Below, in pieces: positions 48,274 to 48,791 of a DNA stretch of 64,000 bases (the first letter of the stretch is position 1; every line of letters starts with the position of its first letter). The DNA is from Streptomyces sp. NBC_01460 (GTDB lineage: Bacteria > Actinomycetota > Actinomycetes > Streptomycetales > Streptomycetaceae). Below the pieces are notes generated by a model. It worked only from the letters and a program-made list of their open reading frames with translations. It did no database searches and had not been told where the DNA came from. Position numbers and translations under genes: made by a program. The stretch is taken from the NCBI RefSeq assembly GCF_036227405.1, contig NZ_CP109473.1:5022001-5086000 (forward strand). Reading direction: 5' to 3'.

Positions 48274-48576
48274 TCACACCCGGCCGCGGCACAGCTCCAG
48301 CAGCGTCATGGCGAGCGCCGTGCCCGGCTTCCCCAGGGCGTCGCTGTAGTGGCTGAGGACGTCCATCTCACGGGACAGGTTCACCCGGCGGCCGCCGGAC
48401 GTGATCCTGGCCTCCTGGATGACCGCGGAGACGGCCATCCGTTCCTGGACGAGGCCGATGATCCGGTCGTCCAGCGCGTCGATGCGCGTTCGGGCGCCCC
48501 CGATCAGGGTCGCGGCCTCGTCGGTGTGGGCGCCGGTCCGCTCGGCGGCCGTCTTCGTGGGTGCGGTGCTGGTCAT
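48274..48576 (-). CDS. Chorismate mutase (AroQ type)
   Basis: 100 residues, a stand-alone helical AroQ-class chorismate mutase converting chorismate to prephenate, the branch to phenylalanine and tyrosine. Signature: GGARTRIDALDDRIIGLVQERMAVSAVIQEAR, with the conserved Arg, Asp and Lys/Arg pattern, then a second and third helix ending LLELCRGRV. No secretion signal. ATG behind AGGAG. A leader peptide and hairpin lie upstream (separate entries). Confidence 0.92.
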   Translation of the reverse strand: MTSTAPTKTAAERTGAHTDEAATLIGGARTRIDALDDRIIGLVQERMAVSAVIQEARITSGGRRVNLSREMDVLSHYSDALGKPGTALAMTLLELCRGRV

Positions 48577-48625
48577 CCGTGACTCCTGGTGGGCAGGGCC
48601 CCCGGAGCGACAGGTCCGCCGGACG

Positions 48626-48663
48626 CCAAGGCGCCCCGGGCCTGTCGGCCCGGGGCGCCTTGG
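48626..48663 (-). terminator. Attenuator-type terminator before chorismate mutase
   Basis: Perfect 17-base stem CCAAGGCGCCCCGGGCC with a 4-base loop, 50 bases upstream of the chorismate mutase ATG. No gene ends just before it on either strand except the small leader frame, so it is best explained as a conditional terminator. It lacks a T-run, as is common in Streptomyces. Confidence 0.75.
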
Positions 48664-48682
48664 AAAGTTGCTTGTCAGGTGC

Positions 48683-48754
48683 TCAAGCAGCACGACCATG
48701 GCAGCCGGCGGGCCGGGTGCCATAGGTAAAGACGAAGATCGTGTGCTGACGCAT
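48683..48754 (-). CDS. Leader peptide with Phe and Tyr codons
   Basis: 23-codon frame MRQHTIFVFTYGTRPAGCHG..., ending 19 bases before the hairpin at 48663. It contains TTC, TTT and TAT within codons 7-11; TTT and TAT are rare in this genome. A 10-base hairpin (48700-48721, one mismatch) begins directly after the Tyr codon, the place expected for a pause hairpin. A CGGCCCG in that hairpin could pair with CGGGCCG at the terminator loop as antiterminator. No ribosome site, but a -10 box 7 bases upstream implies a leaderless start. Confidence 0.65.
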   Translation of the reverse strand: MRQHTIFVFTYGTRPAGCHGRAA

Positions 48755-48761
48755 GAGGGCA

Positions 48762-48791
48762 AGTATGGACCCCGCCCCGGGCCCGGGTCCA
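48762..48791 (-). promoter_or_regulatory. Promoter of the chorismate mutase leader
   Basis: Minus strand: -35-like TGGACC (48791-48786), 18 bases, -10 CATACT (48767-48762), 7 bases before the leader ATG. Confidence 0.5.

What the first reader, a model, noticed from the sequence alone, without database searches (positions are those of the whole stretch)
48576..48791. Phe/Tyr attenuator in front of chorismate mutase
On the minus strand a -10 box, a leaderless 23-codon peptide with TTC, TTT and TAT in codons 7-11, a hairpin starting right after the Tyr codon, and a perfect 17-base terminator stem all precede a chorismate mutase gene. This is the layout of classical ribosome-mediated attenuation and would tie the Phe/Tyr branch to aminoacyl-tRNA supply. 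A leaderless leader peptide would be an unusual variant. The rare codons TTT and TAT in a high-GC genome add weight.
Basis: partly seen in the sequence, partly recalled or inferred. Interest (0 to 1): 0.78.

Follow-up and report, generated by a model that had tools for sequence, protein, structure and literature searches.

The report
Phe/Tyr attenuator of chorismate mutase
A short stretch of RNA in front of the chorismate mutase gene appears to sense phenylalanine and tyrosine supply through a tiny translated peptide that decides whether the gene is transcribed, and similar stretches sit in front of the same gene in several actinomycete families.

Summary
On the minus strand a -10 box (CATACT) lies 7 nt before an ATG that opens MRQHTIFVFTYGTRPAGCHGRAA*. 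A hairpin holding the Tyr codon and a perfect 17-bp stem follow, then an AroQ-type chorismate mutase gene. A leader of this kind precedes that gene in 130 of 130 Streptomycetaceae loci read (window included). The rare codons TTT and TAT are kept in 126 and 127 of them, although long open frames of the window use them for 4 of 340 Phe and 15 of 341 Tyr codons. A small hairpin holding the stop codon shows compensating changes and crowns a predicted antiterminator. A covariance model built only from Streptomycetaceae found such leaders before the same gene in five other families. Direct reading found them in 12 of 19 Mycobacteriaceae-type loci and 13 of 18 of another family. In one family the leader has Phe, Trp and Tyr codons and precedes DAHP synthase, so codon content follows pathway position. 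Best reading: classical ribosome-mediated transcription attenuation with a leaderless leader, as is usual in actinobacteria; a new member of a known kind, not found in the literature searched. Start site, termination and starvation response are untested. The window stem lacks a U-tract.

The parts
48762..48767 (-). -10 box CATACT of the leader promoter
   Evidence: Sequence. Among 127 anchored leaders CATACT stands 6 nt (61) or 7 nt (32) before the start codon; many of the rest have variants such as TACACT or CATAAT, and in about seven the script took an inner start.
48683..48754 (-). Leaderless leader ORF MRQHTIFVFTYGTRPAGCHGRAA*; sensor codons TTC (7), TTT (9), TAT (11)
   Evidence: a leader with F-x-(Y/H/Q)-G is found in 130 of 130 Streptomycetaceae loci read, window included; no Pfam or NCBIfam match to the window peptide at E up to 10.
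48696..48725 (-). Hairpin 1 (1:2), CUAUGGCA/UGCCAUGG with inner CCGG/CCGG, holding the Tyr codon in its 5' arm
   Evidence: -19.4 kcal/mol for the stretch folded alone; 93.9% of cells paired over 29 sequences, no pair with a change on both sides.
48670..48688 (-). Hairpin P2 around the leader stop codon, GCUUG/CAAGC
   Evidence: Two of five pairs change on both sides in 7 sequences each over 29 rows; cognate arms pair better than exchanged arms, 7 of 2000 permutations reach the observed mean.
48650..48708 (-). Predicted antiterminator (2:3): CCGG-C-UGCC-A-UGG pairs with CCA-GGCG-CC-CCGG of the terminator 5' arm, with P2 as its apical stem (approximate limits)
   Evidence: At least 5 pairs in 127 of 127 leaders with the ribosome stalled at Phe and in 127 or 124 of 127 at Tyr; 10.9 bp against 2.9 bp in shuffles (60 of 100 distinct leaders).
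48626..48663 (-). Terminator-like stem-loop (3:4), 17 perfect pairs, GACA loop, -43.7 kcal/mol, no U-tract in this window
   Evidence: six pairs with changes on both sides in relatives; a run of at least 3 T within about 25 nt after the stem core in 56 of 127 leaders; the tool finds no consensus terminator.
48274..48576 (-). Chorismate mutase gene, AroQ type (PF01817), related to the Rv0948c enzyme, with AGGAG upstream of its ATG
   Evidence: NF005894 119.8 bits; PF01817 29.3 bits; PDB 2qbv E 3.7e-12.
48893..50479 (+). guaA (GMP synthase), divergent neighbour; the stem therefore does not end another minus-strand gene
   Evidence: NF000848 773.9 bits; GTG at 48893 (start codon chosen by reading).

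Best explanation
It is a ribosome-mediated transcription attenuator of the chorismate mutase gene that senses charged Phe-tRNA and Tyr-tRNA. Transcription starts at or next to the ATG of a 23-codon leaderless ORF (inferred from the -10 spacing). When Phe and Tyr are plentiful the ribosome runs to the stop codon and covers P2 and the 3' arm of hairpin 1, the antiterminator cannot form fully, and the 3:4 stem ends transcription. When either is scarce the ribosome waits at codons 7, 9 or 11 and covers the 5' arm of hairpin 1. The freed 3' arm then pairs with the 5' arm of the terminator, with the stop-codon hairpin P2 as its crown, and RNA polymerase goes on into the gene. Shown here: anatomy, conservation, compensatory changes in P2 and in the terminator, and the antiterminator fold in the stalled state by computation. 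Inferred: start site, translation, termination, response to starvation.
For: Leader with F-x-(Y/H/Q)-G in 130 of 130 Streptomycetaceae loci: 80 from named genomes, 49 from a family draw, and the window; Tyr replaced in 2 (one locus appears in both sets, 129 distinct leader sequences). TTT in 126 and TAT in 127 of 130 against 4 of 340 and 15 of 341 in long open frames of the window. In at least four leaders (L031, L058, L104, L113) an indel after the Tyr codon changes the peptide tail while the RNA stretch stays, so the tail seems held as RNA and not as peptide. P2 and terminator covary. Stalled-ribosome folding gives the antiterminator in 124-127 of 127. Covariance model R1: a match above 50 bits in 99 of 101 Streptomyces genomes; in the 22 Streptomyces genomes present in both its best match lies right before the gene in 22 of 22 (compared by eye); outside the order its six best matches (40 bits and more) all lie before this gene. 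In family f19 weaker R1 matches precede class-I DAHP synthase with leaders that also carry Trp codons, MQRNFWRFYGYR or MRTAWSFWYG: L175 and L177, and 10 of 12 further f19 matches fetched. The stem lies between promoter and gene, next to divergent guaA.
Against: No U-tract follows the window stem, and the tool finds no consensus terminator or promoter. The antiterminator strands are nearly invariant, so they show no covariation of their own, and 84.5% of their cells pair, the outermost-3' pairs least. The stalled-state energy is only modestly better than shuffles (mean z -1.16, 20% below -2, window -0.68). Without a ribosome, equilibrium folding of the truncated RNA gives hairpin 1 in only 81 of 127, and the window itself prefers 2:3; the model needs co-transcriptional order, where a snapshot gives hairpin 1 in 127 of 127. 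Loss of P2 with the ribosome at stop follows from the mask that was set and is geometry, not a test; with a footprint-sized mask at least 5 long-range pairs remain in 74 of 127 unless pairing across the ribosome is excluded (one search masked everything upstream). The P2 scan has a high chance level (score 13.5 cognate against 11.4 exchanged) and finds no stem in 4 of 127. Tyr is replaced in L118 (His) and L130 (Gln).
Confidence: 0.86

Rival explanations
1. Nascent-peptide arrest: the peptide ...F-T/S-Y-G itself stalls the ribosome in response to free Phe or Tyr or another ligand, and the RNA switch is the same.
For: The residue between Phe and Tyr is nearly always Thr or Ser (116 ACC, 12 AGC, 1 ATC, 1 TTT of 130), a peptide-like restriction.
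Against: That residue is absent in other families (FYG); residues upstream vary; the codons TTT and TAT are kept, which peptide sensing does not explain; the aromatic set changes with the downstream enzyme.
Confidence: 0.06
2. A constitutive leader plus terminator: the short ORF and stem dampen expression of the gene without sensing amino acids.
For: No functional data; weak terminator consensus.
Against: Aromatic codons kept across families and matching the pathway; an alternative fold that uses the terminator arm; compensatory changes in P2, which a plain terminator does not need.
Confidence: 0.05
3. A chance short ORF over a riboswitch or protein-binding hairpin.
For: RNA-level conservation exceeds peptide conservation after the Tyr codon.
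Against: No Rfam family reaches its gathering score in the region; the -10, start codon and frame into F-x-Y-G are kept although the starts vary between ATG and GTG.
Confidence: 0.02

Closest known systems
aroR leader of the aroF (DAHP synthase) operon, Corynebacterium glutamicum (Neshat et al. 2014; not read, seen only as described in passages of PMC11802643 and cited in PMC8079986)
   Same: Actinobacterial leader with Phe-Tyr-Phe, ribosome stalling, aromatic pathway gene, response to Phe limitation reported.
   Different: Other gene (DAHP synthase); Tyr availability reported to have no effect there; no sequence comparison made here.
pheL-pheA attenuator, Escherichia coli
   Same: Phe leader controls a gene for a chorismate mutase-prephenate dehydratase (PMC11802643, passages).
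   Different: Phe only and Shine-Dalgarno-led leader (both recalled); no homology tested.
trpL-trpE attenuator of Streptomyces (S. lividans MFAHSTRNWWWTAHPAAH)
   Same: Leaderless leader, transcription attenuation, same genus (PMC8079986 and PMC1262725, passages).
   Different: Trp codons and another gene; a leader of that type lies elsewhere in this genome.
ilvB1 uORF attenuator of mycobacteria (PMC13236596, passages)
   Same: Same switch logic in an actinobacterium.
   Different: Branched-chain codons; the word chorismate does not occur in that main text.

Membership tests
Ribosome-mediated transcription attenuators of amino-acid genes | Short ORF with codons for the amino acids made by the controlled pathway | tested here: met
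   Phe and Tyr codons before chorismate mutase in 130 of 130 Streptomycetaceae loci, Tyr replaced in 2.
Ribosome-mediated transcription attenuators of amino-acid genes | Mutually exclusive pause, antiterminator and terminator structures arranged so that ribosome position decides | tested here: met
   Computed only: strands shared by hairpin 1, antiterminator and terminator, stalled fold in 124-127 of 127; P2 and terminator covary. The at-stop state follows from the mask, and the no-ribosome state depends on kinetics.
Ribosome-mediated transcription attenuators of amino-acid genes | Intrinsic terminator: G+C-rich stem plus U-tract | tested here: inconclusive
   17-bp stem present, U-tract absent in the window; short T-run in 56 of 127 leaders.
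Ribosome-mediated transcription attenuators of amino-acid genes | Leader is transcribed from its own promoter and translated | tested here: inconclusive
   -10 at leaderless spacing; no 5'-end or profiling data at hand.
Ribosome-mediated transcription attenuators of amino-acid genes | Read-through rises on starvation for the sensed amino acid | not testable with these tools
   Needs an experiment.
C. glutamicum aroR leader | Precedes the DAHP synthase gene aroF | tested here: not met
   Window gene is chorismate mutase; a DAHP synthase leader occurs in family f19.
Any Rfam family | Score above the family's gathering threshold | tested here: not met
   11 matches at E up to 10, none above gathering.

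The most novel reading that the evidence does not exclude
One ancient aromatic leader module serves much of the class: a leaderless F(x)YG peptide, a pause hairpin on the Tyr codon and an antiterminator crowned by a hairpin that contains the stop codon. It has been retuned as it moved between genes, Phe/Tyr codons before chorismate mutase and Phe/Trp/Tyr codons before DAHP synthase. Arrival of the ribosome at a base-paired stop codon is itself the off-switch.
Probability: 0.35. Interest if true: 0.7.

Novelty: new member of a known kind. Interest (0 to 1): 0.6.

Why it matters
Chorismate mutase is the branch point to Phe and Tyr. Control of this enzyme type in actinomycetes is known to me mainly at the protein level, through its complex with DAHP synthase (complex: abstract of PMC4281200 in the listing; the rest recalled). 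A widespread sensor of tRNA charging would add a transcriptional layer, give a handle on Phe- and Tyr-derived natural products in Streptomyces, and offer a natural series (WWW before trpE, F/Y before chorismate mutase, F/W/Y before DAHP synthase) in which codon content can be set against pathway position. The stop codon inside a compensating stem makes the role of ribosome arrival there directly testable.

Tried and rejected
Rfam family: none above gathering. Consensus promoter and terminator scans: nothing found. Phe/Tyr leaders before the full-length class-II DAHP synthase (L236), one of the further DAHP synthase matches (L239), prephenate dehydratase (L243) and pheS (L244) in this genome: none seen with the leaderless test; the other DAHP synthase matches were not checked. 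RNAalifold on the 62-row alignment gave hairpin 1 and the terminator but not P2; P2 was counted on the tighter 29-row alignment. Antiterminator covariation: none beyond P2.

Loci against or outside the reading. Of the 19 f6 loci 7, of 18 f20 loci 5 (a 19th f20 genome, G467, and second gene copies were not fetched) and of 7 loci of f14/f16/f23 6 fail the strict leader test (one of these seven is a 155-nt stub, L228). Some of them carry looser aromatic ORFs such as FFYALTG or DHFYQG. Of the 23 loci fetched for R1 matches I counted 13 as 'R1-found'. Left out before that count: three Streptomyces loci with leaders (L152-L154), three second matches in f3 without leader or gene (L155-L157), L174 and L176 without either, and L175 and L177 with DAHP synthase leaders. 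The 13 of 13 is also partly circular, since R1 holds the codon stretch; that the gene follows in 13 of 13 is not. Of 14 weak R1 matches fetched, 4 had no aromatic leader (two in f19, one each in f35 and f28). The folds outside the family (14 loci) show a stalled-state extended hairpin with a crown in about 6 by eye (L145, L148, L168, L170, L172, L224); in the rest my stem finder chose another stem or the fold differs. An earlier count of TTT and TAT (124 and 126 of 127) rested on an anchor that favoured them; it was redone without that anchor.

Literature: ten searches and passages of eight papers (PMC8079986, PMC1262725, PMC4833913, PMC8914203, PMC11802643, PMC13236596, PMC4633059, PMC9094748) show no Phe/Tyr or chorismate mutase leader in Streptomyces or mycobacteria. 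Supplements, closed journals and one paper not held were not read. The gene name SCO4784 is from recall.

Full report
WHAT IS THERE. On the minus strand, between the divergent guaA gene (GTG at 48893, GMP synthase by NF000848) and a chorismate mutase gene (48576-48274; NF005894 119.8 bits; PF01817), lie in order: CATACT (48767-48762), 7 nt, ATG at 48754, 23 codons MRQHTIFVFTYGTRPAGCHGRAA and TGA ending at 48683, and a perfect 17-bp stem with a GACA loop at 48663-48626. The aromatic codons are TTC (7), TTT (9) and TAT (11). A first hairpin includes the Tyr codon in its 5' arm: CUAUGGCA 48725-48718 with UGCCAUGG 48703-48696. Because the neighbour is divergent, the stem stands between this promoter and the chorismate mutase gene, which has an AGGAG before its ATG. 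The region folds far better than shuffles (z -6.4). No Rfam family reaches its gathering score. The scanning tool finds neither a consensus promoter nor a terminator with U-tract.

CONSERVATION. All 80 carry the leader. A strict automatic test (-10, start, F(x)YG, stop) passes 78 of 80, the two others having AATACT as -10, and 0 of 80 on the reverse strand. In a family-wide draw of 61 genomes 51 had the gene by E-value. Of the 50 clear matches (one the window's own) all 49 others, 9 of them in the same genus, have an F-x-(Y/H/Q)-G leader, with Tyr replaced by His in L118 and by Gln in L130; 47 of 49 pass the strict test. Over all 130 loci TTT is kept in 126 and TAT in 127 (129 distinct leaders, since L034 and L084 are the same place), against 4 of 340 and 15 of 341 in 32 long open frames of the window. 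Of 127 leaders anchored by an exact codon pattern 121 start with ATG and 6 with GTG, and CATACT stands 6 or 7 nt before the start in 93. The residues before the aromatic codons vary. At least four leaders (L031, L058, L104, L113) have an indel after the Tyr codon that changes the peptide's tail but leaves the RNA stretch in place.

THE THIRD HAIRPIN. Around the leader stop codon there is a small stem, P2: GCUUG/CAAGC in the window (48688-48670), GUCUG/CAGAC, GCCUG/CAGGC, GCAUG/CAUGC and others in relatives. On a 29-row alignment two of its five pairs change on both sides in seven sequences each, and the terminator has six such pairs; hairpin 1 and the antiterminator strands have none. Exchanging P2 arms between types lowers pairing: 7 of 2000 permutations of 22 representatives reach the observed mean; the chance level of the scan is high (13.5 against 11.4) and 4 of 127 leaders give no stem.

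SWITCH. RNA ending in the terminator loop was folded with a ribosome mask. With the Phe or Tyr codon in the A site the 3' arm of hairpin 1 pairs with the 5' arm of the terminator, with P2 as crown, in 127 of 127 leaders; with a footprint-sized mask in 127 (Phe) and 124 (Tyr) of 127. With the ribosome at the stop codon the mask itself covers P2 and most of the 3' arm of hairpin 1, so loss of P2 there is geometry and not a test; residual long-range pairing of 5 bp or more stays in 74 of 127 if it may close over the ribosome and is 0 of 127 if everything upstream is masked. Shuffling the middle part drops the long-range pairing from 10.9 to 2.9 bp, but the energy gain is small (mean z -1.16; window -0.68, 60 of 100 distinct leaders). 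Before the terminator is made and without a ribosome hairpin 1 forms in 127 of 127; at equilibrium later in only 81, and the window itself prefers 2:3. The logic is therefore kinetic, as in known attenuators (inference).

BEYOND THE FAMILY. A covariance model, R1, was built from the 29 rows. It finds a match above 50 bits in 99 of 101 Streptomyces genomes and in 101 of 104 in a second, overlapping draw. In the 22 Streptomyces genomes present in both its best match lies right before the gene in 22 (positions compared by eye). Outside the order, in a class search of 296 genomes, its six best matches (40 bits and more), in families f39 (2), f33 (2), f48 and f37, all lie before a chorismate mutase gene, with leaders such as FYYGTG, FFFYG, FFYGNR, FFYGYR. 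Seven loci of family f3 of the same order have FSYGHR, FFYGYG or FGYG leaders and the gene; three further R1 matches in f3 have neither. Reading upstream of the gene in other families gave FFYGYR-type leaders in 12 of 19 loci of f6 and FYGDR- or FYGGR-type in 13 of 18 of f20; in f14/f16/f23 only 1 of 7 passes. The enzyme of one f6 locus matches Rv0948c (E 1.6e-44), so I take f6 for Mycobacteriaceae. Sample folds of 14 loci outside the family show in about six, by eye, the same extended hairpin with a small crown in the stalled state; the others are uninformative or differ.

CODONS FOLLOW THE PATHWAY. Weak R1 matches in family f19 precede class-I DAHP synthase (PF00793 for the enzyme of L175) with leaders MQRNFWRFYGYR or MRTAWSFWYGDG: L175 and L177 and 10 of 12 further f19 matches fetched (two matches from other families had none). 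DAHP synthase feeds all three aromatic amino acids and its leader has Phe, Trp and Tyr; chorismate mutase feeds Phe and Tyr; a WWW leader of the trp type lies elsewhere in the own genome (L236). This is the best independent sign that the codons are sensors. Whether the f19 element is homologous or convergent is open.

KNOWN AND NEW. Leaderless leader peptides are ordinary in actinobacteria: S. lividans has eight described leaders (Leu 2, Trp 2, Ala, Ile, Met, Thr), seven of them called leaderless, none for chorismate mutase (PMC8079986, passages). A 2005 survey states that no conserved structures were seen before genes of other amino-acid pathways (PMC1262725, first of three parts read). C. 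glutamicum AroR (Phe-Tyr-Phe) before aroF is the nearest functional analogue and is reported to answer to Phe, not Tyr (PMC11802643, passages). The word chorismate does not occur in the main texts of PMC8079986, PMC4833913, PMC8914203, PMC13236596, PMC4633059 and PMC9094748. In ten searches I found no report of this element; that covers open-access text only. I rate it a new member of a known kind, with an architectural detail (antiterminator crowned by the stop-codon hairpin) that I have not compared with solved cases.

LIMITS. No expression data; no U-tract in the window; E-values of R1 are rough; the tool does not name the families of G handles, and the name for f6 is inferred.

Noticed in passing
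L236, + strand near base 2953 (own genome, beside a class-II DAHP synthase): A trp-type leader MFAQTTQNWWWTAHPAAR with three Trp codons reads away from the DAHP synthase gene, presumably towards a trpE-type gene.
   Followed up: partly
L175, L177, L245, L246, L248-L254, L258: Leaderless Phe/Trp/Tyr leaders (MQRNFWRFYGYR..., MRTAWSFWYGDG...) before class-I DAHP synthase in family f19; not found in the literature searched.
   Followed up: partly
L178-L184, L187-L189, L191, L193: GTG-started leaders such as MLNMQRRFFYGYRPAVPVV before an Rv0948c-type chorismate mutase in a family taken to be Mycobacteriaceae; 7 of 19 loci of that family lack it.
   Followed up: partly
Genus g14 of the family search: Seven of eight genomes of one Streptomycetaceae genus have no match to this chorismate mutase and the eighth only a weak one; their route to Phe and Tyr is unknown.
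   Followed up: no
L118 and L130: The Tyr codon of the leader is replaced by His or Gln while Phe stays.
   Followed up: no
130 Streptomycetaceae leaders: TTT in the Phe codon is kept although its third base is not paired in any structure proposed here; slow decoding or another structure may be the reason.
   Followed up: no
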